From Nitrososphaerota archaeon (GTDB taxonomy: Archaea; Thermoproteota; Nitrososphaeria; Nitrososphaerales; UBA183): a stretch of DNA of 64,000 nt. This document shows, piece after piece, positions 17,476-39,177 of the stretch (within the stretch, counting starts at the first letter, position 1; each line of letters opens with the position of its first letter). Location: the NCBI GenBank assembly GCA_029785235.1, contig JAFMAA010000004.1:78433-142432 (forward strand). The letters run 5' to 3'. The position numbers and the translations under genes are program-made. The notes beneath the pieces are model-generated. The model made no database searches. It had not been told where the DNA came from and was given only the letters and a program-made list of their open reading frames with translations.

Positions 17476-17644
17476 CTTTCTTCAATGGGCGAAAGAGGTC
17501 CGATACGACAAAAGGAAATCGGAAACAAAGACCTGAAATCAGGGGATTTGCCTAGCCTGGCCTCCCCGCGAGAGAGAGCAGCACGAAGAGAGACGTTATG
17601 GAACTTTGATTACGTTATAAGCACCAACGTTCCGCCGACTGACG

Positions 17645-20371: not shown

Positions 20372-21712
20372 ATGAACCTCTCGTCTCCCGATCAGATTTG
20401 GGAGACCTCAATAGGCCCTGGAGATCTCCAGGAAGCGTTCAACTACGCCACAATAAGCCTGCCATGGACCTTCGACAGGCTCCACTATCAGAACAAATCT
20501 CCGAAGACAGCTAACATCAGGCTGTTGCATGTTCTTGAGGGGGTCCTTAACCAAGAGATTCTACAGAGGGCGTTGAAAAAGCAGGGCTACAAGTGTGACC
20601 TTGATTGGAGCAACTACAGAGAGAGTGACATCTTCGACTTCGAAATAGATGGAAAGCGCTGCGATGTGAAGACTGGAATAATCTACTCCATCTATGACGA
20701 TAAGGTAAGAAGAAAGCCCTTCTCGCCAGACCTGCTGATCAGGTACAAATCGTATTCTGGGCCTCGCTGGAGGACCTTCTTCCCAATTATGGTCCCTCTG
20801 ACGCAGTTAACACCTGACAAGATGAAAGACACCTACATCTTCGGACTTGCCAAGACCGAGCCAGACTTGACGAAGAGGGTCCCCGCAGTTGGAGATCGGG
20901 GGCTTTGGTGCTCTGCCCCGTACGGAGAAGCGTTCGTGTTCTTCCAGAATACCAATCTCATCAAGGCAAGAGAAGCAGCAGGGAAGGGGTTCTACCCGAT
21001 TCTGGAATACAGGCGAACCCAAGCCAAGATAGACGAAGACTCGACTGGCATTGAGGTAACGATCTTCGGCGAATGGAACAAGAAGCAGAAGAAGAGCGCC
21101 AAGGTCTATCTCGAACCAGGTCAACGGAAGACTCTCGATGAAGAGTACTCGTCGCTAAGCTGCGTCATGGTCGACCACCCCGCGACCATGGTCGGTTCAG
21201 ACGTTCTGGCGATAAAGGCGAAGAATAATTTCTCGGGTTTCGTCTCGACAACGGTAGACCCCAAGAACATTAACGACTCCAGATTCGCGTGGTACGTATA
21301 CCCTGACGGGTTCGTGAATCTGAGGGTCCCTGACGACTACAAGGTCTACTGGCTCGGGCACATTTCGTTCAACGAGTTCGCATCGACCTTCGCCAATTAC
21401 CCCTCGCAGTTCATCCCGAACGGCGCGAACATGGACGAGAACACTCCCGGGAGACTTACTCCGAAGCTGAAGGAGAAATTTATCTCCCTTGACAGGAGGA
21501 GAAAGAAGGCCATAGATGCCGGGATTAAGGTCCCATGGCCCGAGTTCTCATCACTCGTGAAGAGGAGTGTGGTTAACGCGGGGATAATGGTCTGCGCAAA
21601 CAAGTTCCCCAGGCCTATTGGCGGGGCCTGCTACCAGTACCCGCCATATGCTCTGCTTGAAGGGGCACTATACGTTCTACCGAGGGACCTTCACACGATG
21701 TCTTCATTGTGA
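20372..21712 (+). CDS. Putative restriction-endonuclease-like protein, 446 aa
   Basis: The gene starts at the base after the helicase stop, so the two are co-expressed. The only enzymatic hint is ESDIFDFEIDGKRCDVKTG at about residues 85-103, a D-x(n)-D-x-K arrangement typical of PD-(D/E)xK nucleases (compare I-D-x-K-T-G in restriction enzymes). The rest is a mixed alpha/beta region without named motifs. It converges on the DNA methyltransferase gene with a 22-base overlap, so a nuclease-methylase pairing is attractive. The restriction function is inferred; the protein could also be a helicase cofactor. Confidence 0.5.
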   Translation: MNLSSPDQIWETSIGPGDLQEAFNYATISLPWTFDRLHYQNKSPKTANIRLLHVLEGVLNQEILQRALKKQGYKCDLDWSNYRESDIFDFEIDGKRCDVKTGIIYSIYDDKVRRKPFSPDLLIRYKSYSGPRWRTFFPIMVPLTQLTPDKMKDTYIFGLAKTEPDLTKRVPAVGDRGLWCSAPYGEAFVFFQNTNLIKAREAAGKGFYPILEYRRTQAKIDEDSTGIEVTIFGEWNKKQKKSAKVYLEPGQRKTLDEEYSSLSCVMVDHPATMVGSDVLAIKAKNNFSGFVSTTVDPKNINDSRFAWYVYPDGFVNLRVPDDYKVYWLGHISFNEFASTFANYPSQFIPNGANMDENTPGRLTPKLKEKFISLDRRRKKAIDAGIKVPWPEFSSLVKRSVVNAGIMVCANKFPRPIGGACYQYPPYALLEGALYVLPRDLHTMSSL

Positions 21713-22716
21713 CCCGACCTTTTGGTCAGGTCCTTCTTGAAAACTAAGCAGTAGTGATGGTGGACGTTCGACACATATTCGAATGGGTACCCCCATGACC
21801 CGAGCATCTTGTTGTCCTGCATCCAGAGCTTTTCCTGCTTAAGGACGTACAGATTGCTCAGCTTCCTTGCCAAGTCCCACGCCAGCGGTACCATCTCACC
21901 TTCTGGAGTGAGTATGTTCTGAGCAATCACAACGAGATATCGCTGGTCTCTGAGGACATCGAACACCTGAGCGAACAAGTCATACATGGCTGAAAGGTAC
22001 GCATCGTACTTGTCTATGTTCCCGTAGTCATGTGGACTCTCGCTGTAGTAGGTGTCCAATCCTATTTCCTCCCTCTTCTTCGACTCTGACTTGACGTGCC
22101 CGCGAGATTTCTTCAACATATTCCAATATGGTGGCGACGTTATGCAGAAGTCGACCGAGTTTATTTCGCGGTCCAACAGTAACTTCTTGATATGGCGAGC
22201 GTCTCCCTCGATTACAATCTGTTTAGGATTCTTCTCGTCCGTATCAATGTGGATGGATCTATCTCTCGCAATGTCGGCCCATTTCTTCGAGAGTTCAATG
22301 CCAATTCCACGTCGATTAGTCATCTTGCAGGCCACCAGTGTGGAACCCGTGCCCAGCATGGGATCGAGAACCGTCTCCCCTTTCTTCGTGAAGAAGGAAA
22401 TGAATTCGGCGATGAGCGTTTCAGGGAATTTTGCCGGGTGCAGGACCTCCTTGCTGGTCCGGGAGGGGGGGTTGTGGACGGTCCAACTTCTGGTAAATTG
22501 AACCCATTCTTTGCCTGTCAAATCGTTGAGGTCGTTCCGTGAATCGTACACTCCTCTATCTCCTTCGAAAGTGCCGAACTGACCCACCTTATCCCCGGGT
22601 TTGAGCCCCTTCTCCTTGGCTTTCACAACAGAATTCTTGGGTTTCTTGCGAGCGTCAATGGGGCTAGAAACATCGAAGGCCAAACTCGATTGGTGAGAGA
22701 ATTCCCTATCCGTCAT
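21691..22716 (-). CDS. DNA N4-cytosine/N6-adenine methyltransferase, beta-type order
   Basis: A 341-residue amino-methyltransferase. Motif I DPMLGTGSTL (SAM binding) precedes motif IV TSPPYW (catalytic), the beta-class arrangement. TSPPY with a following W is seen in N4-cytosine and N6-adenine enzymes. It would add a methyl group to the exocyclic amine of a target base using SAM. ATG 22716 is selected: a CTTAAAAG TATA box near 22760 places the transcription start close to it, and AAGGAAGAA precedes it. It overlaps the convergent endonuclease-like gene, suggesting a restriction-modification pair. Specificity cannot be read from the sequence. Confidence 0.85.
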   Translation of the reverse strand: MTDREFSHQSSLAFDVSSPIDARKKPKNSVVKAKEKGLKPGDKVGQFGTFEGDRGVYDSRNDLNDLTGKEWVQFTRSWTVHNPPSRTSKEVLHPAKFPETLIAEFISFFTKKGETVLDPMLGTGSTLVACKMTNRRGIGIELSKKWADIARDRSIHIDTDEKNPKQIVIEGDARHIKKLLLDREINSVDFCITSPPYWNMLKKSRGHVKSESKKREEIGLDTYYSESPHDYGNIDKYDAYLSAMYDLFAQVFDVLRDQRYLVVIAQNILTPEGEMVPLAWDLARKLSNLYVLKQEKLWMQDNKMLGSWGYPFEYVSNVHHHYCLVFKKDLTKRSGHNEDIV

Positions 22717-22811
22717 GGTTTCTTCCTTGTCCAACCATACAAGCATCGTAAGGAGTCTTTTAAGCTCCCACGTTTGCCCCAACAGCGGTTCCACGAGTTA
22801 GCTATGCTAGA

Positions 22812-23468
22812 GTGTTCGGAAGTGCCGTCCACCCGCTGCTCGATGAGGAAGAACCACTATTGAGTCTCAACAGGTTCATCCAGGTAGAAGTCCCAGCTGA
22901 ACAGGTAGCAATCTTCCGTGCCAAATCGAAGGAGAAGATCAAAGCTGAAGGCGGCTGGCCTGGGAGAAACGCTGAGCTGAAAGCGCACAATTTTGTGATG
23001 GCTTGGACCTCCGAATACTCTTGGAGGAGCCTGCTGGATGAAAGGGGCATCAGGCGAGAATGGGCAAGCACATACGTCGGTGCGGTAGAAGGTGCACCCC
23101 TCGACTTCAAACTATGGTTCCAAGGGCAAATGAAAACCATCGGACTGCGAAGCAGGACAATGGCAGACTTGAGCAAGTACCTTGAGGTGCCGTATCCTGA
23201 TGACAGGGTCAGGACTAAGCAATGGGAGCGGGTTGAGGATTATACGATTGCCGCAAGCCTAACTTTCAACGACCCTGGATCGGCGACATCGCGGCTGTAT
23301 GGGGCAATTGAAAAAGAGCGATTCATCCCTATCTTGGAGAAGAACTACGTCTGGCGGTCAAGGAATCAACAGGAGCTCTTTAGGCCCGTGTCTTTGAGTT
23401 ATTTCGATTTCGAGTTGATGAACAAATTGCTTACTACTGCAGACCGGAAAGAGACAGCTTCTCTCTAA
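22812..23468 (+). CDS. Putative nuclease-like hypothetical protein, 218 aa
   Basis: An alpha/beta protein with GRNAELKAHNFVMAWTSEYS, then GAPLDFKLWFQGQMKTIGLR and YLEVPYPDDRV. The spacing G-x-x-AE..., P-x-DF..., IGLRS resembles a restriction-endonuclease-like core (E, D and a basic residue) seen in island genes of Nitrososphaeria, but several catalytic positions are uncertain. It is divergent from the methyltransferase gene and could be a second nuclease of the system. Start GTG 22812 is tentative. Function unproven. Confidence 0.45.
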   Translation: MFGSAVHPLLDEEEPLLSLNRFIQVEVPAEQVAIFRAKSKEKIKAEGGWPGRNAELKAHNFVMAWTSEYSWRSLLDERGIRREWASTYVGAVEGAPLDFKLWFQGQMKTIGLRSRTMADLSKYLEVPYPDDRVRTKQWERVEDYTIAASLTFNDPGSATSRLYGAIEKERFIPILEKNYVWRSRNQQELFRPVSLSYFDFELMNKLLTTADRKETASL

Positions 23469-23598
23469 TTGAAGAGATGGTTCCGCCCCCAGACTAGAGT
23501 GTTGGACGCGATGGAGACAACTTGCTACGCGTTTTGTCTAATGACCCACACTTGTGGGCTTCGTAGCGTTTAATGACGTCTTTCTACTTGGCGCGAGC

Positions 23599-24546
23599 AT
23601 GGTCGCCAAGAAGGGAAGGCCGCCTATGGATGACAGGGCTTGGGTGATCAAGCATCTCAAACCTCTGATGGACGAAGGCAAGTCGATGCAATCCAAGTCT
23701 GCTTCATTGGGGGCGAAACTGCCCACATACGACAAAGGCTACTGGACCGGACTGAAGTTGATGCTTCTCAAGTACTATGTGAGGCCCTATCTAGAAATCC
23801 TGGTCCGACAAGGGAAACGAGTCGCGTACGTCGACCTGTTTGCGGGTCCAGGGCTAGACCTTATCGGCAATAGGAAAGTTCCCGTTCTAGGATCTCCGAT
23901 GATACCCCTAATTATCAAGGACACCCCGTTCAGATTTTCCCAATTCCTGTTCTCCGACACTGACTCCGGCACATTTGGTGCGCTTCAGCAGAGAGTGAAC
24001 ATGGTCGGAGAACTCGATGGAACATGCAGGGTTCTGAACGAGGACGCTAACGCCGTCGTAGGAAAGCTCCCTGGGCTTCTTTCAGAATCAGACCACGCGC
24101 TAGTCTTTCTGGACCCCGAAGGAATGGAATTCGCATGGGATTCTGTGCGGGATCTGGTGAACAACGTCGAGTGTGACCTTGTTATCAACTTCCCCTCTGC
24201 AGGCCTCAATCGGAACCTTCAGTATCGAGAGGCCGAGCCGACGGTGAGGAGATTCCTTGGATTAGGTCCACTGGAACAGATACCTGAGGGCGCGAATGAA
24301 GCCTGGGCGATTGACCGTTACAGGAAGAACTTGGCTTCTATTGGCAAAGACATCTCGATGGAGATTAGGGTAAACAGCGGCCTTTCCTACCATTATCACC
24401 TAATCCCGGCTGTAAGAAAGACCGGGGGCGGCTCTCCCTGGTTCAGACCTATCTTCCAGCCGGCGAAAGAGAGAATCGAAAGAATGTCTGGAAAGGTCTT
24501 GGGGCTCATTGCTGAGCAGATAGAAGGTGAACAGGGGACTCTCTAG
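23599..24546 (+). CDS. tcmP: Three-Cys-motif partner protein TcmP (copy 1)
   Basis: A 315-residue protein of the TcmP family, proteins found beside three-Cys radical SAM enzymes. The N-terminus has KHLKPLMDEGKSM and a KGYWTGLKLMLLKYYVRPYL helix. A Rossmann-type methyltransferase-like core follows, with VDLFAGPGLD (motif I-like) and VFLDPEGMEF (motif IV-like). Its biochemical job is not established. ATG 23599 is used: a TTTAA box near 23570 puts the transcript start at the ATG. It converges on radical SAM gene A, sharing CTAG at the stops. The second TcmP in this window is only distantly similar. Confidence 0.8.
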   Translation: MVAKKGRPPMDDRAWVIKHLKPLMDEGKSMQSKSASLGAKLPTYDKGYWTGLKLMLLKYYVRPYLEILVRQGKRVAYVDLFAGPGLDLIGNRKVPVLGSPMIPLIIKDTPFRFSQFLFSDTDSGTFGALQQRVNMVGELDGTCRVLNEDANAVVGKLPGLLSESDHALVFLDPEGMEFAWDSVRDLVNNVECDLVINFPSAGLNRNLQYREAEPTVRRFLGLGPLEQIPEGANEAWAIDRYRKNLASIGKDISMEIRVNSGLSYHYHLIPAVRKTGGGSPWFRPIFQPAKERIERMSGKVLGLIAEQIEGEQGTL

Positions 24547-25652
24547 GAATTGAAGGCGTTCTTTCCATAGCAGTTGCAGGTTGACGGAGTATACTTCAGG
24601 CCTAGTTTCTCCCACATGTCAACCGTCTCTTTGCACATCGAAATCTTTGACTTGTCGAAGCCCAACGCAGAGAGCTTGTCATAGAAGAAGCTGTAAATCT
24701 CGTACCTCTGGTCAAGCCCGAGTTTCTTCCCCCATCCCGAGTCTTCCTTGAAGAAGTCGGTCCAGTTCATATTGATTCCTGCTTCCTGCGCATATTTGAT
24801 GGTCTTCCACAACCCCCTTGGCGTCCCCAAGATGATACGCGAGGGGGTCACCCGTTCAATCAATCGATAGATGATGTCCTGGTAGTGCAATTTCCAGTCC
24901 TCGATAGGGAAGATGGGATCGAACCTAATTCTCACGTCATAACCAGCTTCTTGGACCATTCTTGCAGCCTCAATGCGTTTCTCCGGAGGCGCGGCAGCTC
25001 GTTCCCATTTCTTGGCGACTTCAATGGCATTGACACTCCATGCGCAGATGATATTCCGACGAGGCCTATCTACGAGGAACTTGACGTTCTTCGGGCCAAA
25101 TTTGCTCAGCGTGGAGAGCTTGTGCGTGCTTTGGTGGTCGAACTTATCCGCGATTTGACTCATAATTGCGGGGTTCATGAGTGAATCAGACAACTCACCG
25201 CTGTTGAAAATGCTTGGGACTCGAATCTTTGCGAAGGCCTGATTTAGAGCCGAGTTCAAATGCTCGAATTTCACAAATCTGGGCTTCATTTTCCCACGCA
25301 TTGTTCCCCTGAGGTAGCAGTAGTTGCAATCCAAGGGGCAACCAAAAGCCCATCGAAGTTCCCAGAACGGGCCACAAGCGATGTCCTCCGGTGTCTTGTG
25401 AAAGAGACTAACTAATCCACCACCATAGGAAGTGTCAGCTGGGCCGGGCCTGGTTTCAGAGGCTGTTTCTGGATGGACGACCGAAGTAACTGCTTCTGGC
25501 CTGACGAATTCACCTAGCTGTCTGCTTCCCAGGCTTCGCTTTGCGCGTCTCTCTGTTCTTATTGTCCGCCACGCCTTGAACGCAGCGTCCTTGAACTTCT
25601 TTCTTTCATTTCTGTCGTGCTCAGACAGTTCTTCGTCCAATGGTGGGTTCAA
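24543..25652 (-). CDS. SPL-like three-Cys radical SAM protein (copy A)
   Basis: A 369-residue radical SAM enzyme of the spore-photoproduct-lyase-like group. The Fe-S motif is C105-x3-C109-x2-C112 (FGCPLDCNYCYLRG), with an extra Cys at 93. A basic N-terminal extension (1-80) is absent from copy B. Both copies also keep MCKET-x-DMW (C340 here) and a TCxCYG tail (C359, C361), perhaps a hydrogen donor or a second cluster site. Radical SAM enzymes cleave SAM to a 5'-deoxyadenosyl radical; the substrate here is unknown, with DNA or RNA a fair guess from SPL kinship. The start is TTG 25652; it follows TcmP2 by 67 bases in the same operon. Confidence 0.8.
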   Translation of the reverse strand: MNPPLDEELSEHDRNERKKFKDAAFKAWRTIRTERRAKRSLGSRQLGEFVRPEAVTSVVHPETASETRPGPADTSYGGGLVSLFHKTPEDIACGPFWELRWAFGCPLDCNYCYLRGTMRGKMKPRFVKFEHLNSALNQAFAKIRVPSIFNSGELSDSLMNPAIMSQIADKFDHQSTHKLSTLSKFGPKNVKFLVDRPRRNIICAWSVNAIEVAKKWERAAAPPEKRIEAARMVQEAGYDVRIRFDPIFPIEDWKLHYQDIIYRLIERVTPSRIILGTPRGLWKTIKYAQEAGINMNWTDFFKEDSGWGKKLGLDQRYEIYSFFYDKLSALGFDKSKISMCKETVDMWEKLGLKYTPSTCNCYGKNAFNS

Positions 25653-25719
25653 AGTCGTCCGCTACCCCAAAAACATTGGGATTCGGGCTGGACGCGCGGA
25701 TGGCCTCTCCTTTCATTCA

Positions 25720-26655
25720 TCAAAACCATTCCTCCAACGAGGAGGAACTCCGCCGCCTTTTCGAATCCATGATATCTTTCATGATCTTGTTGGCCGTATC
25801 GTTTCTCGTAACGAAGACCAGATCGAAGTAAGGCCTAGGAGAACCAGGAGGCATTTCCAGGTGCATTACATGGGTATAGTGCTTCCCCAGCTCAGAGAGG
25901 TAGAAGTCAAGCATGGCCTTTCTCCTTCCTCCTTCGCGAGCTCTGCTCCAAACATCGTGCCATTCCGGGCCGCCGAGATACATGTCGAGCGTATTCACGG
26001 TGGTTCGGGCGGTCTGTCGGATTACAGGGTCGGGGTGGTCGATATTCTGAAGCTGAGCGGCAGAGAAGTCGACTCCTTGGTACGAGTAGTGAATCAACAG
26101 TTCTGTGTATGGTCTTTCCAGGACGCTCTGAATAGTCTCGTACCGGAGAACAGGGTCACCGATTCCGAAAGGGTCGACGTAGACCAAAGCGAATTCCCGG
26201 CCGACTTCTTCCAACACGCTTTCTAGCCTGACATTGGCATCTCCGTGGACGCAGGTAGAGAATCCGGCGAACGGCTCGACATTTGCCTTTAGCAGCGAAA
26301 AGGTACTATCATTGACTTCAATGAACCAACACTTGGCTTCGTTCTTCTTTGACTTGTCTCTGATTTTGCCGTCGACCACGGACCTTGTCATGGCCATCCT
26401 AACCGGAGATCCATCGATTAGTTTCCTTTCGACGTAGTCCTGAACTCGGCCACTTCCCGCGCAAGCGTCGATAAAATGATGGCCAATCCCGTTATTCCTC
26501 ATGATCAGACTGAGGGGATGACAGTAACCGGCTAGAACGCCGTACTTCTGTAGTGTTCCAACTCCGGCCTGTACGAGACCACACTTCGGGCAGGACCTTG
26601 GTCTATCCGAGGCACCATAGCCGCAGTTGACACACTCCCAAGGTGTCAAACTCAA
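25720..26655 (-). CDS. tcmP: TcmP-type partner protein with N-terminal zinc ribbon (copy 2)
   Basis: About 311 residues. The N-terminus is a zinc ribbon (CVNC and CPKC) that copy 1 lacks. The methyltransferase-like core has HHFIDACAGSGRV and ALVYVDPFGIGD, equivalents of copy 1's FAGPGLD and LDPEGMEF, followed by a helical region. It is assigned to the TcmP family, partners of three-Cys radical SAM enzymes. TTG 26655 is taken as the start because a start at 26751 would overlap the radical SAM B gene by 82 bases. It is placed between radical SAM B and radical SAM A in one operon, so it could serve either. Confidence 0.7.
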   Translation of the reverse strand: MSLTPWECVNCGYGASDRPRSCPKCGLVQAGVGTLQKYGVLAGYCHPLSLIMRNNGIGHHFIDACAGSGRVQDYVERKLIDGSPVRMAMTRSVVDGKIRDKSKKNEAKCWFIEVNDSTFSLLKANVEPFAGFSTCVHGDANVRLESVLEEVGREFALVYVDPFGIGDPVLRYETIQSVLERPYTELLIHYSYQGVDFSAAQLQNIDHPDPVIRQTARTTVNTLDMYLGGPEWHDVWSRAREGGRRKAMLDFYLSELGKHYTHVMHLEMPPGSPRPYFDLVFVTRNDTANKIMKDIMDSKRRRSSSSLEEWF

Positions 26656-26669
26656 GCCATTCCAATCCG

Positions 26670-27578
26670 CTAGCCGTAGCCATAGCAATGGCAGGTTTGA
26701 GGAGTGCTTGGCAGATTCATTTGCTTCCACATATCTGATGTCTCTTTGCACATCACGATTCGCTCTTTCTTTGCTCCTGCCGCCACTAGCTTGTCATACA
26801 TGAATTCGTACATTTCCTTCCTTAGCCGAAACGGCATTTTCAAACCCCAGCCCGTTCTCTCGGCATCTGGAGAGCTGAAGAATTGCGTCCAGCTTCTGTC
26901 GTTGCTGAACATGATCGTCTTCCTCAGTCCTCTTGGGGTTCCGAGAATAATCTTCTCTGGCGTAAACCGGGACGTAATCATGTCTGCTAGATTGCCGTAG
27001 TGTTCCTTCCAATCGGGGATTGGAAACATGGGATCTATCCTCACCCTCACCCGGTAGCCCACGTCGAAACACCTGCCGGCAGCTTCAATCCGCTCTTCTG
27101 GAGGCGCAGTTCGATTCTCCCATCTTCGAGCGGCTTCAGGCGCATTGATGCTCCAAGATGCGATGGTGTAGTCCCGATGCTTCTCGTAAAGAAAGCTCGC
27201 AGCTTTCAAGCCAGCTTTGGACAGTGTGACAAGTCTGTGCTTCCCCAGTTCCTCAATTTTGTCCGCAATGGCTTCCATGAACTTAGGAATCATGAGAGAA
27301 TCAGACAACTCACCACTGTTGAGCGTCACAGGTTCTCGAATTTGGTCGTGAGCCTTTTCGATTGCCCTCAGGACAGCATCTAGTGGTCTATGGGTGATGT
27401 TGTTCAGATTCCCCCTCATCGTTCCCCTCAGATAGCAGTATGAGCAGTCAAATGGACAGCCGTAGGCCCATCTTAATTCGTAGAATGGCCCACACGATAC
27501 TTCGAAAGGGGTCTTGTTGAACCGCATGACTATGCCGTCTATCTCAGGCCAAGGACTACTGATTGTTATTTCGGCCAT
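26670..27578 (-). CDS. SPL-like three-Cys radical SAM protein (copy B)
   Basis: A 302-residue paralogue of the protein at 24543. It has C41-x3-C45-x2-C48 (YGCPFDCSYCYLRG), an extra Cys at 29, and the same conserved tail elements: MCKET (C277) and TCHCYG (C296, C298). It lacks the N-terminal extension of copy A. The GELSDSL and IILGTPRGL segments are shared word-for-word or nearly so with copy A, which marks a duplication. ATG 27578 lies three bases from the ParB stop, so the genes are translationally coupled. The target is unknown; the linked TcmP and ParB suggest nucleic acid. Confidence 0.8.
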   Translation of the reverse strand: MAEITISSPWPEIDGIVMRFNKTPFEVSCGPFYELRWAYGCPFDCSYCYLRGTMRGNLNNITHRPLDAVLRAIEKAHDQIREPVTLNSGELSDSLMIPKFMEAIADKIEELGKHRLVTLSKAGLKAASFLYEKHRDYTIASWSINAPEAARRWENRTAPPEERIEAAGRCFDVGYRVRVRIDPMFPIPDWKEHYGNLADMITSRFTPEKIILGTPRGLRKTIMFSNDRSWTQFFSSPDAERTGWGLKMPFRLRKEMYEFMYDKLVAAGAKKERIVMCKETSDMWKQMNLPSTPQTCHCYGYG

Positions 27579-27581
27579 CGG

Positions 27582-28547
27582 TTATTCCCCCCAGTGTTTG
27601 CCTGACGGCTTCTTCCCGTCGCATTTTAGGGTAAACTCTTTCTTGTGCACAGGGCATACGAATTTCCCAATGTCGTAGACGGTACCTTCCTTTACCGTCA
27701 TTTCTTTGTTTGCGATTTTCCTTCCGGACAACATGGTTCGGTGGAGTTCTTGGCGTGCCAGTTGTTGATTCGTCGATTGCTTCGCTTCCTTCTTCAGCTG
27801 TCTGACGTGCCGTTTCACTCTGCTCTCCTTGATGGGTCCCCCTTGCTTTTGCACATCTTCATAGAGGTCCAGTGCCTCCGTTGCTGCCTCAAGAGGTATC
27901 TCTTCAGAAAGGACAGCCTGCTTCAGAGGTTCGGGAGCTCCCTTCAACACCTTTACGACTTGACGAATCTCTGTCTGAGGCGCAGGGCGCTTTATCTCGC
28001 CACGCTCAACCATCTTCAGGACCTTGACTCGAGTCTTATCATCTAGGCCCTGAGTTTCGGAAATCATGCTTGTAGGAATCGACTCAGGGAGCCCACTAGC
28101 TCTCGACCTAAACTCGCGAGCTTCAATTATGTTGGACACGGTTTGAGGGTGATAACCCACCGCCTTCGCAAGCTCTCCATGTGTGGCGAATTCCTTACTC
28201 TTCCACAGTTCATAGGTGGCATTCTCTCTCTCAATTGAAGTCAAGTCTTCCCTGTGAAGGTTCTCAATGAAAGACTCGAGAAGCACCCTCTTCTCCGGGA
28301 TGTTCTTGACAAGCACTGGGACCTTCTTTATACCGGCTAACCGACTTGCCCGCCATCTTCGCTCGCCAGCGATAATCTCGTATTTTGAACCTTGGGTACG
28401 CACGATGATGGGCTGCAGCATATCCACCTGCTTGAGCGAATCTGCCAGCGCCTCCAGCTTTTCCTGGCTGAAGCCCTGCCTAGGTTGGTACGGGTTCGGC
28501 TTCAGACTGTCTACATCAACATACTTGACCTCCAGAACTTCACTCAT
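27582..28547 (-). CDS. parB: ParB-like nuclease/CTPase-fold DNA-binding protein
   Basis: A 321-residue ParB family member. It has the N-terminal ParB/Srx fold with VDSLKPNPYQPR and GERRWRASRLAGI (the CTP-binding box), ENLHREDLTSIERENATYEL, then a helix-turn-helix KAVGYHPQTVSNIIEAREF. A C-terminal basic stretch ends in a CPVHKKEF...C unit that might bind zinc. ParB proteins clamp onto DNA from a parS-like site. ATG 28547 overlaps the upstream small gene's stop (ATGA), so it was chosen over ATG 28586. There is no ParA partner here, so partitioning is unlikely; recruitment or DNA recognition for the radical SAM proteins is more plausible. Confidence 0.85.
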   Translation of the reverse strand: MSEVLEVKYVDVDSLKPNPYQPRQGFSQEKLEALADSLKQVDMLQPIIVRTQGSKYEIIAGERRWRASRLAGIKKVPVLVKNIPEKRVLLESFIENLHREDLTSIERENATYELWKSKEFATHGELAKAVGYHPQTVSNIIEAREFRSRASGLPESIPTSMISETQGLDDKTRVKVLKMVERGEIKRPAPQTEIRQVVKVLKGAPEPLKQAVLSEEIPLEAATEALDLYEDVQKQGGPIKESRVKRHVRQLKKEAKQSTNQQLARQELHRTMLSGRKIANKEMTVKEGTVYDIGKFVCPVHKKEFTLKCDGKKPSGKHWGE

Positions 28548-28756
28548 GCTCCCGACTCCGTTCCTTCGCTCCTCCTTGTCCTCCATGCTCGCTTCGCAGC
28601 CAGCTTTCGTTTCAATTGCCGCCCTTCAATCCATTGGCCAATGGCCTCCTCCAGAGCGAGTGTCAGGTTCCCCTTTCTCATACCTAGACTCCTGGAAACC
28701 TCCATTCTGAAGTTTGTGTCTAGATCGTCTCCGATAACTGCCTCAATCCTTCCCAT
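28544..28756 (-). CDS. Small DNA-binding-type protein (RHH/antitoxin-like), 70 aa
   Basis: A 70-residue basic protein. The beginning IEAVIGDDLDTNFRMEVSRSLGMRKGNLTLALEEAIGQWI has the strand-then-two-helices look of a ribbon-helix-helix protein (R-x-E-V-x-x-x-x-G-x-x-K-G-x-L-x-x-A-x-E-x-A). That fold is common in operon autorepressors. ATG 28756 lies about 25 bases from a CTTAAAAC box, suggesting leaderless transcription. The stop overlaps the ParB start. It is the first gene of the five-gene operon and the palindrome at 28787 sits right upstream, so it probably represses the operon. Confidence 0.7.
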   Translation of the reverse strand: MGRIEAVIGDDLDTNFRMEVSRSLGMRKGNLTLALEEAIGQWIEGRQLKRKLAAKRAWRTRRSEGTESGA

Positions 28757-28786
28757 TTCTTGCGCCCTTGAAATTCGAGCGTTTTA

Positions 28787-28812
28787 AGGTTTTGTGGATA
28801 TCCTCAAAACCT
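28787..28812. promoter_or_regulatory. Near-perfect 26-bp palindrome, likely operator or parS-like site
   Basis: AGGTTTTGTGGATATCCTCAAAACCT (given in two parts: AGGTTTTGTGGAT and ATCCTCAAAACCT) is palindromic except for one base pair position repeated on each arm. It adjoins the CTTAAAAC TATA box of the RHH-ParB-radical SAM operon. A short relative, AAGGT-AAA-ACCTT, lies at 28831-28843. Confidence 0.7.
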
Positions 28813-28841
28813 CAGACAGACGGGGGCATGAAGGTAAAACC

Positions 28842-29297
28842 TTAGTTGTTGACGCGAAATGGAACCGAGGTTGCTTCGCCTAGCTCTTTTAACATCGAAT
28901 CAAATCTCTTCTGCGCAGGCAACGGTGACCCATACTCCACCTTCATCAGCGCTTCGAATACCAGTGCTGAGCAATAGCCCATCTTTTTGGCCGACGCCCT
29001 GCCCTTCAATTTCAAGTGAATCATCTTCATCACGCCCAGGAGGATTACCGCATCAGGGTCGACGGTGTCATCCGTCATTGTGAAGTGTCGTTCCTCTGAG
29101 ACTCTCTGGTCGAGTTCATCTTTGAATGATTCGTTAAACGACCACGCCACTGAAGTTCCCGCGGTCTTCTCCACTTTGATGACACCTAGCCTTTCCATCT
29201 CTTCGTAAAATGACTTCATACAAGAATAATGGTTTGGTAAGCCGACGTCAGACTTTTCAACCACTTTGCCGCATAAAGCGCAAGCCAACCTGACCAC
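28842..29297 (-). CDS. Hypothetical protein with N-terminal cysteine pair, 151 aa
   Basis: An N-terminal CALC pair with a later Cys (SCMKSF) could form a zinc knuckle; the remainder is helical and charged, with no named motif. It lies upstream of the radical SAM operon on the same strand but separate, with the palindrome between them. GTG 29297 is the likely start. It may be a regulator or accessory of the island; function unknown. Confidence 0.55.
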   Translation of the reverse strand: MVRLACALCGKVVEKSDVGLPNHYSCMKSFYEEMERLGVIKVEKTAGTSVAWSFNESFKDELDQRVSEERHFTMTDDTVDPDAVILLGVMKMIHLKLKGRASAKKMGYCSALVFEALMKVEYGSPLPAQKRFDSMLKELGEATSVPFRVNN

Positions 29298-29368
29298 TCA
29301 TTGTACTGCACCCAAAGCGCACTTCTAAGCGTTTAACAACTGGGACAGTTTCGCTTACCGATCGTAGC

Positions 29369-29512
29369 TTGAAGAAGCAGCTGCTAGTGTGCAAAGATTG
29401 CGGGAATGCTCAGATTGACGAAGACAACGCGGTTCAGGATATCTTGGGTGATGGGCTACCCAAGTGTTCCAAATGCGAATCGAAATCCTGGATAATGTTG
29501 CCAGTCGAGTAA
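29369..29512 (+). CDS. Mini zinc-ribbon protein, 47 aa
   Basis: TTG at 29369 opens a 47-residue frame with CKDC and CSKC pairs about 20 residues apart, a typical zinc ribbon. A GTTTAAC box lies roughly 35 bases upstream. It sits between the hypothetical gene and the convergent recombinase gene. This is too short for most callers; the cysteine pattern is the main support. Confidence 0.5.
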   Translation: MKKQLLVCKDCGNAQIDEDNAVQDILGDGLPKCSKCESKSWIMLPVE

Positions 29513-29530
29513 CCGCACAGCAGGTACTGT

Positions 29531-30763
29531 CTAAGCCGCACTTCGGCCCCAAGTCGTTGCCTGAACTGGCCCTTCGGGCGCGAGGAGCCGCTCAACGAGC
29601 ACCGTCAGATTGTCGATTCTGCGGCCGAGGCCGGCAATCTCAGAACTCTGTCTTCGGAACTCCTTGAGGAGCTTGGAGAGAACCTCCCCGCCCTCTTCAA
29701 AAGGCCGCTCCCTCGCGGCTGGTCCTCCAGCACGTCTGCGAATCAGGAGGAGCGGTTGCAGCTTCAGGTAGACCGCCTCCAGCCTGGCAAGAGAGGGTCT
29801 GTGGTAAGAGGAGTGGTGGCCCAGGAGGAGCTCGACGTCCTCCGTGACGATTCTGTCGTCGACGCCCCTCCACGATCCGAGCCTGGTCCCAACCCCCCTC
29901 TTCGCCTCTGTTTCGAACCGTTTCCTGAAACCATGGCAGAGCTTGAATGCAGGATGGCCGTCTCGGGTCACCACTCCCGATGACCTCCACCCCTCCTCGA
30001 AAGCGGACTGGATGCCGTCGACCGTGAGGGGCTTCGCCATGCCGGAGGGCAGCCTGGCGTACCTCCGGCGGACGCGCCTGGGCGACCTCGGAAGGCGGTG
30101 TCCCCGGTGGACTGCGAGGACCGGGGAGTGAGGCCCCATCCATTCCCCCCTCCTCCTACGCCACCTCCAGTACCTCTTGAGCACGGCGACCGCCTCCCGG
30201 GAGATGAACGTAGTGTACTCCTCGGCTTCCCTCGCATAGACCTTGACTGCCGCCACCCCGCTGTCCCTGAAATCCACATCTCTCACCTTTAGGAACCCGT
30301 ACCCTCCTCCCGCCTTGGGGAACCAGAATGCCCCCACCCGCATCCCGGAGGACAGCATCATCAGGGCAGCGGCCCCAAGCCTGTAGTCCGTTTTCGCTAG
30401 GAACCTGCGAATCTCTCTCGGGGTCGGGGGCCTGTCCTCCCCCAGCCTCCTGACTGGAGGAATAGTCTGTTCGATTCTCTCCCATCTGAGACGGACACCG
30501 CTGAATGTTACGAAGCTTCTCACGCAGTACAGATAGCCCGAGAGGGTGGACGACGCAATGTCCTTTCTCTTCCTCACGAAGAACCGGATGAGAAACCGCT
30601 CTGCCTCCAGGGGGCGCTTCTGGGCCAGTCGGAGGAAGGCGTCAGGCCGTCCTGCAAGGACGATCCTGAGGGTTCTCCTGTATCCCTCCTTCGTGGCGTC
30701 CGAACGCCTAGTCCTAAGAAAAAGCCTGACGGCCGACTCCTGTCTGTTCACTTTATGGGGCAA
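29531..30763 (-). CDS. Tyrosine recombinase/integrase
   Basis: A 410-residue recombinase with an N-terminal core-binding helical domain (about 5-120) and a C-terminal catalytic domain. Catalytic residues visible are the first Arg in LSSGMRVGAF, CHGFRKRF supplying H-x-x-R, LLGHHSS with the second His, and a nucleophilic Tyr in LARLEAVYLKLQP. These enzymes cut and rejoin DNA at attachment sites. It is the best marker that the neighbouring genes form an integrated element, but no att repeat was recognised. TTG 30763 gives the longest form; GTG 30751 is an alternative. The high G+C of this gene matches the element at 5-15 kb more than the neighbouring island genes. Confidence 0.85.
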   Translation of the reverse strand: MPHKVNRQESAVRLFLRTRRSDATKEGYRRTLRIVLAGRPDAFLRLAQKRPLEAERFLIRFFVRKRKDIASSTLSGYLYCVRSFVTFSGVRLRWERIEQTIPPVRRLGEDRPPTPREIRRFLAKTDYRLGAAALMMLSSGMRVGAFWFPKAGGGYGFLKVRDVDFRDSGVAAVKVYAREAEEYTTFISREAVAVLKRYWRWRRRRGEWMGPHSPVLAVHRGHRLPRSPRRVRRRYARLPSGMAKPLTVDGIQSAFEEGWRSSGVVTRDGHPAFKLCHGFRKRFETEAKRGVGTRLGSWRGVDDRIVTEDVELLLGHHSSYHRPSLARLEAVYLKLQPLLLIRRRAGGPAARERPFEEGGEVLSKLLKEFRRQSSEIAGLGRRIDNLTVLVERLLAPEGPVQATTWGRSAA

Positions 30764-30830
30764 ACCGCGGAATGTTCAGCTTAAGAGCAAAACTCCCCTG
30801 AGGAGAGTACGGAGGGGTCGGAATTCATTC

Positions 30831-32090
30831 CTAGGGAAAGTGCCCGGTTGCCATAAATCGATTGAGCTCGTCTTGGGTTAGTTCTTCCAGTCGAGGGAAG
30901 TTGTCAGACGAGAAAGATTGTGCTCCAAGCATAACGAATGTATGCTCAAGGCCTCCGTAAGCCCGCTGCTGTTCTTTTGGTCCGAGCTTGCCGCTCGTCT
31001 TCTTCCACAATCCATATCGCCTCTTCCACAGCCTTGGATAATACGGGAGCGGCTCGAGACGTATGGGGCCTACCCATATTTTGCGCCTATTCGACCTCCG
31101 AATCTGTGATTCCTTCCTATTGAAAGGTATCAGCACCTTCATGGCCACTTCGTTCATCAGTTCAACAGCCTCGTTGTATTTGCGTTCGTAATGCGCGAGC
31201 ATCCGGGTCCGTTCCTCAATCTGTAACAACAGCAAACTTCGAAGTGACCCTATGTTGTAGAGAGCGGAAGCCAATTTTCCCTTATGTGATGGAACTCTGG
31301 CAATGTCTTCCCGAAACTTCTCAGTGGAAGTCGCCGGCTGCGCACCTTGATCCCGCAGAATCCCCATTATTAGCTCGTGTTGCTTTATCAGGTCTTCCAG
31401 CGAGAATTCGTTCGACACTCGAATCTTGGGTAGCGGCCTAACCGGAGCGACCATGGCCGGCAGTTTTGACGGCTCGGCGCTAGGCATCACCTTCTTTCGC
31501 TCTTCCAGAAAAGCCCTCAAACTCCTAATCACAGAGCGCGTCTTCTCGACATTCGAAGCAATGTCGATCTCGTCTATTCGCTCGCCCGGTCTCTTGATTT
31601 CCTTCAAACTCCTCCCCATTGCCTTCAGTATCCTTTTGTCTAGGTCGAGTTCTCTCGAGGGGGTCGCCCAATACCCATACTTGGGTCCCTGGCTGTAGTC
31701 AACGTACAGGCTTCTTTCCTTGAATTCTTGATCTTGCTCCGCGAAGAAATCGCTCATGGCTTGCCAAGCACCGTACTTCAGGAAGAAGCGACCAGCCGCG
31801 GCCAGTTTCCGTCTGTGTGCCCCACCAGACCTGAAGATAGCAATGTAGTCTGTAGGAGTGACCTCTCTTTTCACTGACCAATAATCTGCAAGGAGAAGTG
31901 CTTTGCCGATTTCTTCTTTGGCCACCAAAGCCAGGTACCGAGACGAAGGGTAACGCCTAGCCTTCAGCAGTCGCTCGGCATCCAAGTTCAGCCGTTCAGC
32001 ATTGTTCAGGGAGTGCTTGACGCCATCCTCCAGCTGCTCCCAAGTGATAGGTCTCTCTATCCCAATCTGACGCCTCCGGTCCTTGGTCAT
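30831..32090 (-). CDS. AbiV-like HEPN-domain protein
   Basis: A 419-residue protein. Its N-terminal region has AERLLKARRYPSSRYLALVAKEEIGKALLLADYW, here noted in shorter parts (LLKARRYPSSRYLALVA and KEEIGKALLLADYW), the hallmark of the AbiV/HEPN group linked to abortive infection in Lactococcus. The middle and C-terminus are helical and basic without named motifs; a clear R-x4-6-H RNase motif was not identified. ATG 32090 is preferred because a TTTTTATA box (32114-32121) lies about 25 bases upstream. It sits beside the integrase at the end of the island. A phage-defence role is inferred by family only. Confidence 0.6.
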   Translation of the reverse strand: MTKDRRRQIGIERPITWEQLEDGVKHSLNNAERLNLDAERLLKARRYPSSRYLALVAKEEIGKALLLADYWSVKREVTPTDYIAIFRSGGAHRRKLAAAGRFFLKYGAWQAMSDFFAEQDQEFKERSLYVDYSQGPKYGYWATPSRELDLDKRILKAMGRSLKEIKRPGERIDEIDIASNVEKTRSVIRSLRAFLEERKKVMPSAEPSKLPAMVAPVRPLPKIRVSNEFSLEDLIKQHELIMGILRDQGAQPATSTEKFREDIARVPSHKGKLASALYNIGSLRSLLLLQIEERTRMLAHYERKYNEAVELMNEVAMKVLIPFNRKESQIRRSNRRKIWVGPIRLEPLPYYPRLWKRRYGLWKKTSGKLGPKEQQRAYGGLEHTFVMLGAQSFSSDNFPRLEELTQDELNRFMATGHFP

Positions 32091-32978
32091 CACCAGGATA
32101 GGTCAAGGTGGAGTTTTTATACGAACCAGCCCATTATGAAATCGAGTGGTCAGACGTTGGGCAACGACGAGGCTCCAAAGGCCTCTCTGCCCCCGCCAGA
32201 GGTGGCCAGGTCAAATCCGGCCGACCCCATCCATTCTTGCCGAGCAAACTCCTCGTTCACCCACTCAACCAGGATGCCCTTTCGACGCTTCTCAAGTTGC
32301 AGGCTCCCGACGGTGGGTTCTACACCTGATACTATCCTGGCATGACCCATGGGAATGCGACAACGAACGCCGAAACTACACGTCTGGCAATTCTTGCTCT
32401 CTCAGAGTAACCAGAGTGCGCTTCCTTCAATCTGTTAGAGGAGCAAGGACAAAACGGTCGAGAACGCAAGGCCGCTTCGCCCTTGAGGTTTTGGGGGACC
32501 ACGAAGTCATGGACTATCCAGTGCTGGTAGAAGAATACGAACCGGACTGGGTCGAGGAGTTGTTGGGGGATTACCCACATTGGGACGGTTGTGCGCCGAA
32601 GCAGAAGTCGCTTCGCCCGAGCTTGTTGTCGAATTGGTGGTGGTAGCTGTCGATTGCGTGCGAACTGGCAGAACTGTGAGAACGTCTACGACCAGGAAAG
32701 GGGAAGTCGCTACAAGCACTCCCCTTCCTGCCTATCACGACGATAGTCTTCGTCTCCGATTCATCTCCTAGGAGATAGAGGGCGACGGGTGTATATGGCG
32801 AATTTGCGAAACCGCTCCCCGATCCTTCCACCATCACCAAACCTACTTGTTTTCGAGGGACTCGCCGGGTTCGATGGGATTTGACAAGAAACGAAGCCAC
32901 ATCCACCTGACCCGGCATTTCAACCCGCGCCGGGATAGACGGCATTTTACCAACCCCCGACCCTTTCAGATTCTCCCG
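32091..32978. other. Gene-poor stretch with only weak ORFs
   Basis: Besides the AbiV-type gene's TATA box at 32114-32121 I see no well-supported gene. A 45-residue plus-strand frame at 32509-32646 (acidic start, Trp-rich end) and a low-complexity minus frame at 32571-32945 remain possible but lack family, promoter or ribosome-site support. A TTATGAAATCG segment near 32131 offers another weak start. The stretch could hold the right end of the integrated element. Confidence 0.4.
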
Positions 32979-34730
32979 CTACTCCACTATCGTCTCGTCT
33001 TCTATCTTTCTCCTCATAGCACGGACTAGATCGCCCCGAGAAAGGTATCCTACGACCGCGCCGTCGTCATCCGTTGCCACTAGGAAAGGCACGTCGCGTA
33101 GCGACATCCTCCTCAGAGCGTCATAGGCATACTCTCTCTGCGGCATCGACTCGAACTCCTTCGAACACGCCTCGCCAGCAGTCAGCTCTCTGCTGGCGCT
33201 GGCCGCCGCCGCATACACTTGTTCGCGGCTTATCACCCCGACCACCTTCGCGCCGCTCACAACGATCAACCGCTTTCTCGCGCTAAACGGGTGTCCCGGG
33301 GTCGTCATCTGCTTATAGAGTTCGACCACGGGCTGCCCCGCGTCTACTGTCACAGGGGGAGCCGACATGACCGAGCCTATCCTGATTTGCCGGAGCGGGT
33401 TGTACTCGTAGATGTTCTTCACCCTGAACCCCCTCCCGGCCAGCCTCTCCGTCATGATCGAGTCCTCCATCAGGACTTCGCCCACGAGTTCCCCGATGAC
33501 GACGGTGATGATGATTGGGAGCACCCCCTGGTAGTCCTTGGTCACTTCAAGCGCGAATATTATTGATGTAAACGGGGCGCGCGACGCCGTGCCAAAGACC
33601 GCCGCCATCCCGGCGATAGCGAACACAGGAGGGCTCACGCCCAGCCCCGGAGCGACTGAAACGATCCACGAGCCGAACAGGTACCCCACCGACCCTCCAA
33701 TCAGGAAGAGCGGTGCCAGTGTTCCTCCTGAGGTCTGGGACCCCATAGCCAGAAGCCAGGCTGCCGCCTTGGCAACGAGGATCATCAGAACCACTTCAAC
33801 TGCGAACTGTCCTGTCAGCACCCCGGAGATGACGTTGTATCCTACCCCGAGTACCTGAGGAACGGCGAATCCTATCACCCCGACCGCTAGCCCACCTATG
33901 GCGGGCAGCCAAGGCTGACCGAGCTTCAGGCTCGAGAACAGGCGTTCGGTCCTGTATAGGCCGCGGGACAGAGCTGAGCCAAGGACACCACAGACTAGGC
34001 CGAGCCCCGCATAGAACGGGAGAGTGCCGATTCCTCCGAAGTTGTAAGACGGAGTCAGGAAGAGAGGTTGCGACGAAATAAGATAGATGTGCATCCACCC
34101 CCCGATGGCCGCCCCAACGGCGACGGGGACCAGCGACTTGACCCTGAACTCGAAGAGCAGAAGCTCGATGGCGAGGAGTATGGCCGCAATGGGGGTCCCG
34201 AAGACCGCCGCCATCCCGGCAGAAGCACCAGACGCAAGGAGGATTTTCCTCTCCGCCCCCGTCATACGGATTTTCTGTCCGACAAAAGAGCCGAACGCCC
34301 CCCCTGTCTGGATTATCGGCCCTTCCGCGCCGAAGGGCTGGCCTGACCCTATGGTGACAGCGGCGGACACGGCCTTGAGCACCCCAACCTTCGGCTCAAT
34401 CTTGCTGCGATTGAGCAGCACAGACTCCATCGTCTCCGGGATGCCGTGTCCGACAATCTTGGTGGAGCCGTACTTGATCATCAGGCCCGCGATGAGCCCA
34501 CCGACAACGGGAAGGACGACTACAAGCACCCCGAGGTGGTTGAATTCTGGGGAAGCGAACGAGAAACTGAACTGCCCGTAATAGAACAGGTTCGTGATCA
34601 GACCGATCAGGTGATAGAGCGCGAAGGCGATGAAGCCGGCAACGAATCCGATTCCTACAGCCAGGAGGGTCAGGAGGCCTATCCTTGATTCCTCCCGTTC
34701 CAAGTTCGTCTTGTTCTTGCTAGCGGGCAT
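32979..34730 (-). CDS. ClC-type chloride channel/transporter with CBS domains
   Basis: A 583-residue membrane protein. Family signatures are GHGIPE, GSGQPFGAEGPIIQ (containing the gating Glu) and GTASRAPFTS, spread over about 10-12 membrane helices up to residue 430. A C-terminal cytosolic tandem CBS pair follows (about 440-580), ending MRRKIEDETIVE. ClC proteins conduct Cl- or exchange Cl- for H+; the gating Glu suggests an exchanger is possible, but one residue does not decide it. CBS domains bind nucleotides and tune activity. It is divergent from an HTH_10 regulator, with a 19-bp palindrome between them. Confidence 0.9.
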   Translation of the reverse strand: MPASKNKTNLEREESRIGLLTLLAVGIGFVAGFIAFALYHLIGLITNLFYYGQFSFSFASPEFNHLGVLVVVLPVVGGLIAGLMIKYGSTKIVGHGIPETMESVLLNRSKIEPKVGVLKAVSAAVTIGSGQPFGAEGPIIQTGGAFGSFVGQKIRMTGAERKILLASGASAGMAAVFGTPIAAILLAIELLLFEFRVKSLVPVAVGAAIGGWMHIYLISSQPLFLTPSYNFGGIGTLPFYAGLGLVCGVLGSALSRGLYRTERLFSSLKLGQPWLPAIGGLAVGVIGFAVPQVLGVGYNVISGVLTGQFAVEVVLMILVAKAAAWLLAMGSQTSGGTLAPLFLIGGSVGYLFGSWIVSVAPGLGVSPPVFAIAGMAAVFGTASRAPFTSIIFALEVTKDYQGVLPIIITVVIGELVGEVLMEDSIMTERLAGRGFRVKNIYEYNPLRQIRIGSVMSAPPVTVDAGQPVVELYKQMTTPGHPFSARKRLIVVSGAKVVGVISREQVYAAAASASRELTAGEACSKEFESMPQREYAYDALRRMSLRDVPFLVATDDDGAVVGYLSRGDLVRAMRRKIEDETIVE

Positions 34731-34788
34731 TCTCCATTCTCAAACCGAGCGGCGGGCCGCAGAACCCCAAAAGCTGACATAACACTTG

Positions 34789-34807
34789 AACCTAACAGTG
34801 TTAGGTT
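34789..34807. promoter_or_regulatory. 19-bp perfect palindrome between divergent genes
   Basis: AACCTAACAGTGTTAGGTT is a perfect 9-bp inverted repeat around one central base. It lies between the ClC gene (start 34730) and the regulator gene (start 34862). A second overlapping inverted repeat (AACACT and AGTGTT, 34781-34802) shares it. It is a likely operator. Confidence 0.6.
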
Positions 34808-34861
34808 TGCAGGGAGCTACCACACTAGGTTTTTCTGACCCGTTTCGGCGTACGCCGGTGT

Positions 34862-39164: not shown

Positions 39165-39177
39165 AAGGGCAGGGCAG

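What the first reader, a model, noticed from the sequence alone, without database searches (positions are those of the whole stretch)
23599..28843. Two TcmP plus two SPL-like radical SAM proteins with ParB in one autoregulated island operon
Seen: radical SAM A (24543) and B (26670) share CX3CX2C, MCKET-x-DMW and TCxCYG; TcmP1 (23599) and TcmP2 (25720) share motif-I-like and DP-x-G motifs; a ParB-like gene and a small DNA-binding gene lead the operon; the palindrome at 28787 overlaps the promoter. Known: TcmP is named as the partner of three-Cys radical SAM proteins, and its function is not described. Inference: ParB supplies DNA binding and the enzymes modify or repair nucleic acid, perhaps as defence. 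The duplicated pair with a zinc-ribbon TcmP is not a layout I recognise.
Basis: partly seen in the sequence, partly recalled or inferred. Interest (0 to 1): 0.85.

Follow-up and report, generated by a model that had tools for sequence, protein, structure and literature searches.

The report
TcmP, radical SAM and ParB cassette
A mobile-looking island in what is probably an archaeal genome carries two pairs of enzymes that may alter nucleic acid, one of them next to a DNA-binding ParB protein; related sets occur in other genomes and in viral contigs, but what they do has not been shown.

Summary
The genes are real. Both TcmPs pass TIGR04474, both radical SAM proteins pass Pfam SPL, ParB passes PF02195. 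One detail is wrong: TcmP1 is on the + strand, convergent with radical SAM A, so it is outside the ParB operon.

TcmP lies directly beside the SPL-like radical SAM in 17 of 21 genomes holding it and in 3 of 3 viral contigs. ParB leads such a cassette in 2 of the 21: L005 and L028. TcmP loci without the SPL-like protein have a DUF5131-type gene instead (5 of 5), so the SPL-like protein appears to fill the DUF5131 slot of PADLOC's PDC-M30/M41. An AAxKAW peptide sits on the radical SAM N-terminus or on the small DNA-binding protein's tail.

Best reading: a mobile two-enzyme nucleobase-modification module, one copy coupled to ParB. Target, chemistry and benefit are untested.

The parts
28842..29297 (-). 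151-aa ORF of unknown family upstream of the cassette; membership in the operon uncertain
   Evidence: no Pfam or NCBIfam family over cut-off; no match in the loci held
28787..28812 (.). palindrome AGGTTTTGTGGATATCCTCAAAACCT in the 85-base gap upstream of the small DNA-binding gene; candidate operator
   Evidence: one in the window against 0.5 expected per 64 kb; position suggestive, function inferred
28544..28756 (-). small ribbon-helix-helix-like DNA-binding gene (70 aa) with C-terminal AAKRAWRTRR tail, a variant of the AAxKAW peptide
   Evidence: PF16762 E 0.0089, below cut-off; homologue first in the cassette of L005, 46% identity; tail comparison
27582..28586 (-). ParB (334 aa) with GERRWRA and ENLHREDL motifs and a C-terminal CPVH..C zinc-like motif; no ParA recognised among the window genes scanned
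   Evidence: PF02195 108.8 bits; TIGR00180 130.2
26670..27578 (-). SPL-like radical SAM protein B (302 aa), no N-terminal extension
25720..26655 (-). TcmP2 with N-terminal zinc ribbon; start TTG 26655 or 26649
24543..25652 (-). SPL-like radical SAM protein A (369 aa) with N-terminal AAFKAWRTIR extension
   Evidence: PF20903 54.6; AAxKAW
23599..24546 (+). TcmP1, convergent with radical SAM A (listed ORF begins 23554)
   Evidence: TIGR04474 102.1; PDC-M41A 68.2 bits

Best explanation
The island carries two copies of a mobile two-enzyme module that chemically alters nucleobases, most likely in DNA. In each copy an SPL-fold radical SAM enzyme works with a TcmP, a protein with a class I methyltransferase fold that binds and perhaps methylates or positions the base. 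The SPL-like enzyme takes the place that DUF5131 holds in other TcmP loci. Copy B is RHH - ParB - radical SAM B - TcmP2; ParB, a probable CTP-dependent DNA clamp with no ParA recognised nearby, would load or target the enzymes on DNA, and the small DNA-binding gene regulates or recruits. Copy A is radical SAM A convergent with TcmP1, and carries the AAxKAW peptide on the enzyme itself. The modification would protect the element or mark self DNA. Shown: gene content, conserved pairing, DUF5131/SPL-like alternation in the loci examined, predicted folds and residue changes. Inferred: mobility of the island, catalysis, DNA as target, ParB as loader, role in defence or anti-defence.
For: TcmP directly beside the SPL-like radical SAM in 17 of 21 genomes and 3 of 3 viral contigs. 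TcmP loci lacking it have a DUF5131-type gene instead, 5 of 5. The paired proteins diverge together (Mantel r 0.42, 5 of 5000 permutations as high, 18 pairs). ParB-radical SAM-TcmP order in window, L005 and L028. Relatives of ParB and of radical SAM lie on metagenome contigs of identical length 9 times against a mean of 1.3 (maximum 6) at shifted lengths, two of the nine being the window itself; TcmP2 and radical SAM 6 times against 0.68 (maximum 3). AAxKAW occurs 13 times in 4961 frames, always on the radical SAM N-terminus (8) or the small gene's C-terminus (5); permuted patterns 0-1 times. TcmP2 fold closest to RlmJ, then Trm1, both nucleobase methyltransferases; radical SAM B closest to SPL. 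DNA methylases, restriction-type genes, helicases and integrases in the window and among 83 neighbour ORFs of 14 loci. TcmP hits PADLOC candidates PDC-M41A/M30A. Precedent for a ParB-like partner of a base-modifying enzyme: DpdB with DpdA (PMC12839542, passages read).
Against: The closest folds to TcmP2 act on RNA, not DNA. The DPPY-like motif of amino-methyltransferases is not kept: after DP the residue varies and one of 18 has lost the Pro, so TcmP may not methylate. ParB is directly upstream in only 2 of 21 genomes, and a full-length relative of it occurs without the enzymes in G062. Shared contig lengths of ParB and TcmP2 relatives are no more than chance (3 against a mean of 1.1, maximum 4). 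Correlated distances could also come from co-inheritance, and swapping the two window partners does not lower the correlation (0.417 against 0.419), so it does not show which TcmP belongs to which radical SAM. The neighbour survey had no control set, and ordinary metabolic genes are among the neighbours too (fumarase, queuosine synthesis, transporters). No modification has been observed.
Confidence: 0.45

Rival explanations
1. The module modifies or repairs RNA (tRNA or rRNA), for example to protect or restore translation during virus infection; ParB and the small gene only regulate or serve the mobile element.
For: TcmP2 is closest to RlmJ (23S rRNA), then Trm1 (tRNA); radical SAM plus methyltransferase in succession on tRNA is known from wyosine synthesis (recalled).
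Against: SPL, the nearest relative of the radical SAM, acts on DNA; ParB and DNA methylases lie near the genes in some loci.
Confidence: 0.27
2. The radical SAM protein is a direct-reversal DNA repair enzyme like SPL, with invariant Cys29 serving as hydrogen donor in place of Cys141.
Against: Glu is invariant at the donor position in the 88 sequences of A4; constant pairing with TcmP and patchy presence are unlike a housekeeping repair enzyme.
Confidence: 0.1
3. ParB and the small DNA-binding gene are maintenance genes of the mobile element that merely lie upstream, not parts of the enzyme module. This is compatible with any of the other readings.
For: ParB is not directly beside the radical SAM in 19 of 21 genomes; a full-length relative occurs without the enzymes in G062.
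Against: Same order with tight spacing or overlap in window, L005 and L028 although the TcmP types differ; no ParA recognised among the window genes and the few L005 and L028 genes scanned, which is not a full search; the small gene's tail peptide recurs on the radical SAM.
Confidence: 0.3
4. The pair modifies a peptide or protein, as many radical SAM enzymes do.
Against: SPL is clearly closer; the partner has a methyltransferase fold nearest to nucleobase enzymes. No precursor peptide gene was noticed, but none was searched for.
Confidence: 0.06

Closest known systems
TcmP + DUF5131 pair (TIGR04474 with PF07505; PADLOC candidates PDC-M30 and PDC-M41)
   Same: TcmP over the TIGR04474 cut-off, directly beside a protein with a radical-SAM-like three-Cys motif.
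   Different: The partner here is SPL-like (PF20903, CX3CX2C), with no DUF5131 motif in the window's ORFs; ParB and a DNA-binding gene are added; two pairs side by side. The two partner profiles do not match significantly (hhalign E 0.91).
Spore photoproduct lyase (SPL; PF20903, TIGR04070)
   Same: Fold and radical SAM core; CX3CX2C.
   Different: Glu90 at the donor Cys position; four more invariant Cys (29, 277, 296, 298); TcmP partner; NCBIfam equivalog cut-offs not met.
RlmJ (23S rRNA m6A2030 methyltransferase) and Trm1
   Different: 14% and 11% identity in those rows; N-terminal zinc ribbon; DPFG or DPEG in place of DPPY (RlmJ motif recalled).
Dpd system (DpdA with ParB-like DpdB)
   Same: A ParB-superfamily protein coupled to a nucleobase-modifying enzyme on DNA (PMC12839542, passages).
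   Different: The cassette proteins scanned hit no Dpd model in PADLOC; ParB here scores best with Noc and Spo0J-type models.

Membership tests
TcmP (TIGR04474) | Score over the curated cut-off of 53 bits | tested here: met
   TcmP1 102.1, TcmP2 105.1
PDC-M30 / PDC-M41 candidate defence system (PADLOC) | A component (TcmP-type protein) | tested here: met
   TcmP1 68.2 bits, TcmP2 33.0 bits to PDC-M41A (PADLOC's own thresholds were not at hand)
PDC-M30 / PDC-M41 candidate defence system (PADLOC) | B component (DUF5131-type protein) beside it | tested here: not met
   No ORF of 60 aa or more in the window holds the DUF5131 motif; radical SAM A and B hit no PADLOC family. The PDC-M30B and M41B models each hit two neighbour ORFs, inferred to be the DUF5131 ORFs of L024 and L025
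SPL-like radical SAM (PF20903) | Score over the Pfam gathering cut-off of 27 bits | tested here: met
Spore photoproduct lyase proper (TIGR04070, TIGR03886) | Equivalog cut-offs of 400 and 437.55 bits | tested here: not met
   57.6 and 69.8; 32.8 and 29.7
Spore photoproduct lyase proper (TIGR04070, TIGR03886) | Hydrogen-donor Cys at the C141 (Bs) / C140 (Gt) position | tested here: not met
   Glu90 aligned there against the PDB chains and B. velezensis SplB; Glu in 18 of 18 and invariant in A4 (88 sequences). Caveat: some SPLs place the donor elsewhere
ParB (PF02195, TIGR00180) | N-terminal domain with GERRxRA and ENxxRxDL motifs, over cut-off | tested here: met
   108.8 against 26.3 and 130.2 against 58.45; motifs
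Chromosome or plasmid partition system | ParA partner and parS sites | tested here: inconclusive
   No ParA family among the window genes scanned between 17645 and 32093; parS sites were not searched
Class I SAM methyltransferase with DPPY-type motif IV | (D/N/S)PP(Y/F/W) (recalled) | tested here: not met
   DPEG in TcmP1, DPFG in TcmP2; DP kept in 17 of 18 but the next residue varies
Nucleobase-modifying activity | Altered nucleoside | not testable with these tools
   needs mass spectrometry

The most novel reading that the evidence does not exclude
An SPL-fold radical SAM enzyme with a second metal site made by its four extra invariant Cys works with TcmP to install an undescribed base modification in DNA, and a CTP-switch ParB clamp, recruited through the shared AAxKAW peptide, slides the enzymes along DNA; the whole replaces the DUF5131-TcmP pair in archaeal mobile islands and viruses as a self-marking or anti-restriction system.
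Probability: 0.17. Interest if true: 0.88.

Novelty: new variant of a known kind. Interest (0 to 1): 0.62.

Why it matters
TcmP is a named protein family for which I found no described function: 3 papers in the held library contain 'three-Cys-motif partner', and in the two whose passages I read it is only a table entry. Finding that an SPL-like radical SAM protein takes the place of DUF5131 beside it suggests what the unknown pair needs, a radical SAM enzyme plus a methyltransferase-fold partner, and ties it to an enzyme whose DNA chemistry is understood. The ParB-led version offers a compact four-gene set for expression and nucleoside mass spectrometry, and a possible new use of the ParB clamp.

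Tried and rejected
Single operon for all genes: rejected, TcmP1 is on the other strand. Overlapping TcmP2 start at 26751: rejected by homology. True spore photoproduct lyase: rejected on cut-offs and donor Cys. Homology of SPL-like and DUF5131 by profile comparison: not significant (E 0.91). Conserved upstream palindrome: not found in L005 or L028 with the settings used. Empty insertion site in G001: 12000-31900 has no counterpart there beyond one 46-base match and 34606-51899 is 99% identical, but the G001 contig ends exactly at that point, so no site could be read; G001 is in 110 contigs, so absence is likely but not proved. Phage collection: no match for radical SAM B; two Gordonia phages for TcmP2 at 26%. 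Plasmid collection: six distant SPL-type matches for radical SAM B. TcmP2-type proteins are rare in genomes: one marginal match in 398, two loci in the genome contigs, none confirmed in viral contigs. Partner assignment in the window by co-divergence: not decisive. Shared contig lengths of ParB with TcmP2 relatives: not above chance. Viral fold library for TcmP2: mostly generic methyltransferases, best E 5e-4. Literature: no paper for 'PDC-M41', 'DUF5131', 'TcmP' with 'radical SAM'; the two hits are unrelated T-cell papers (listing only); none for SPL with archaea and ParB.

Rows dropped or chosen: the co-divergence test used 18 pairs (window twice, 15 genomes, one of three viral contigs); G625 (TcmP split into two frames) and G551 (partial radical SAM) were left out. 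A4 was picked by hand: the window protein, 9 loci and 78 of the 120 listed of 463 matches. The contig-length lists hold 77 TcmP2, 120 of 463 radical SAM and 118 of 135 ParB matches. The neighbour survey was given 83 of the 91 ORFs; the six of L007 and the ParBs of L024 and L053 were left out, only the first 25 of 72 Pfam and 162 PADLOC families are shown, and no control set was run. Loci brought in twice under short and long stretches were counted once.
Full report
What is there. Reading the window with family models confirms the genes. On the - strand, in transcription order, lie a 70-aa ribbon-helix-helix-like gene (28544-28756), ParB (27582-28586), radical SAM B (26670-27578), TcmP2 (25720 to 26655 or 26649) and radical SAM A (24543-25652). 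TcmP1 (23599-24546) lies on the + strand and meets radical SAM A tail to tail. TIGR04474 recognises both TcmPs well over its cut-off (102.1 and 105.1 against 53 bits); Pfam SPL recognises both radical SAM proteins (54.6 and 57.2 against 27); PF02195 recognises ParB (108.8 against 26.3). The listed start of TcmP2 overlaps radical SAM B by 82 bases, but relatives begin with MWKCxNCG, so a TTG just past the stop of radical SAM B is the likely start. The palindrome at 28787-28812 is there, but one such repeat is found in the window against 0.5 expected, so only its place upstream of the small gene is notable.

Setting. Of the 17 kb from 16001 to 33000, 16 have a GC content of 50-55% (the other is 60%), whereas 42 of the other 47 kb of the window have 56% or more. 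The stretch holds a UvrD helicase with a PD-(D/E)XK domain, an N4/N6 DNA methylase, a HEPN-AbiV protein over cut-off and a tyrosine-recombinase-like gene matched only weakly. The window's own assembly is not held. The nearest held genome, G001, has 12000-31900 only as one 46-base match and is 99% identical from 34606 on, where its contig ends. Neither SPL-like radical SAM nor TcmP was found in G001. The stretch looks like an integrated element, but no empty site could be read.

The pair is conserved. A profile of the SPL-like radical SAM found it in 2 of 201 relatives, 9 of 398 genomes of the phylum and 10 of 292 of the phylum of G537, together 21 genomes. G537 is the genome of L005, which came in through a TcmP2-type search, so it was not drawn blindly. 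TcmP lies directly beside the radical SAM in 17 of 21; it is missing in L031, L033, L034 and L050. Ten of the 17 are co-directional and seven convergent, so the convergent layout of TcmP1 is itself recurrent. The three viral contigs found carry two radical SAM genes in tandem with a convergent TcmP; in L007 genes matching major head and, weakly, portal protein families follow. Over 18 pairs the distances of the two proteins correlate (r 0.42; 5 of 5000 permutations as high), though exchanging the two window TcmPs changes nothing (0.417), so that test does not assign partners.

Partner swap. TcmP is named as the partner of a three-Cys protein. In my set the five TcmP loci without an SPL-like radical SAM (L006, L035, L036, L037, L038; found through TIGR04474 or TcmP2 searches) all have a DUF5131-motif ORF directly beside TcmP. 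Among the loci with the SPL-like protein, only L024 and L025 also have one; the window has none. PF07505 hit 2 of 83 neighbour ORFs, and the PADLOC models PDC-M41B and PDC-M30B hit two each, while PDC-M41A and M30A hit TcmPs. I infer that these two are the ORFs of L024 and L025, since the pattern picked out just those two among the neighbours. So the SPL-like protein appears to fill the DUF5131 slot of a candidate defence pair. The two sets were gathered by different queries, and profile comparison of the two partner families is not significant (E 0.91).

ParB. The same order, small DNA-binding gene - ParB - radical SAM - TcmP, occurs in L005 (Thermoplasmatales archaeon CSMAG_1140; ParB 37.5%, small gene 46%, radical SAM B 45%, TcmP2 49% identity by tblastn) and in L028 (G213, same phylum as G001; ParB E 9e-69, TcmP matched better by TcmP1 than by the TcmP2 profile, small gene weakly AbrB-like and below cut-off), each with an integrase within about 5 kb. 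That is 2 of 21 genomes; two more have a divergent ParB about 3 and 5 kb away (L053, L024). Contig lengths shared by ParB and radical SAM relatives number 9 against a mean of 1.3 at shifted lengths (maximum 6); two of the nine are the window's own contig. TcmP2 and radical SAM share 6 (mean 0.68, maximum 3), ParB and TcmP2 only 3 (mean 1.1, maximum 4). The contig length 9661 is shared by relatives of ParB, radical SAM B, radical SAM A and TcmP2, so the double layout probably exists elsewhere. Against specificity: in 398 genomes of the phylum only G213 and G062 gave a match over the whole profile, and in the 17 kb around it in G062 no enzyme was found. ParB keeps the GERRWRA and ENLHREDL motifs and ends in a CPxC/H...C motif.

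A shared peptide. The strict pattern AA-x-KAW occurs 13 times in 4961 reading frames (40 residues or more) of the 29 stretches scanned; patterns with the last three letters permuted occur 0 or 1 times. All 13 lie either in the N-terminal extension of the radical SAM (window A, L007, L008, L009, L024-L027) or 12-14 residues from the end of the small DNA-binding gene (L005, L028, L052, L054, L056); the window's small gene has AAKRAW. L007-L009 and L026 look closely related, so about ten are independent. Twelve of the 21 genome loci have neither form. A looser pattern also hit one unrelated ORF in L074. Outside the window no locus has both forms. I read this as a docking or nucleic-acid-binding peptide supplied in cis or in trans; that is inference.

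Mechanism and verdict. I consider most likely a two-enzyme nucleobase-modification module on DNA, of which one copy is coupled to ParB. Pairing, alternation with DUF5131 and predicted folds are shown; chemistry, target, loader role, mobility and benefit are inferred. RNA as target is the chief rival. The DpdB precedent (passages of PMC12839542) shows a ParB-superfamily protein serving a base-modifying enzyme. In the held library I found TcmP only as a table entry in the two papers whose passages I read (the third was seen in the listing only), and nothing relevant by 'DUF5131', 'PDC-M41', TIGR04474 or PF07505. It is a new variant of a known kind.

Noticed in passing
window 17645-20371 +: UvrD helicase with C-terminal PD-(D/E)XK domain (PF12705 65.2 against 22 bits), resembling GajB-type models in PADLOC.
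   Followed up: partly
window 20372-21712 +: 446-aa ORF directly after the helicase; by eye it holds a DFEIDGKRCDVKTG stretch like a PD-(D/E)XK nuclease core; no Pfam family over cut-off.
   Followed up: no
window 21691-22794 -: N4/N6 DNA methylase whose relatives also lie near the radical SAM-TcmP genes in L007 (E 1e-32) and L054 (E 9e-27).
   Followed up: partly
window 30831-32093 -: 420-aa HEPN_AbiV protein over cut-off (64.7 against 27.1), upstream of the integrase-like gene.
   Followed up: no
L007 (6743-10021), L008, L009; L026: Viral contigs with tandem radical SAM genes and convergent TcmP; L026 from genome G394 has the same layout and neighbour ORFs of the same lengths (403 and 317 aa), perhaps a provirus or co-binned virus, which hints at an archaeal host.
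   Followed up: partly
P0204, P0205: Relatives of this ParB that also carry a DUF488 domain (PF04343).
   Followed up: no
L049:6989-7989: TcmP split into two overlapping frames beside an intact radical SAM gene: a decayed gene or an assembly error.
   Followed up: no
window 24606-27341: Short DNA repeats 2115 bases apart with 79% identity fall in the two radical SAM genes, traces of their common origin.
   Followed up: no
S. meliloti SMa2243 / SMa2245 (PMC12445080, passage): A TcmP is listed next to the Hna phage-defence gene in an expression table.
   Followed up: no
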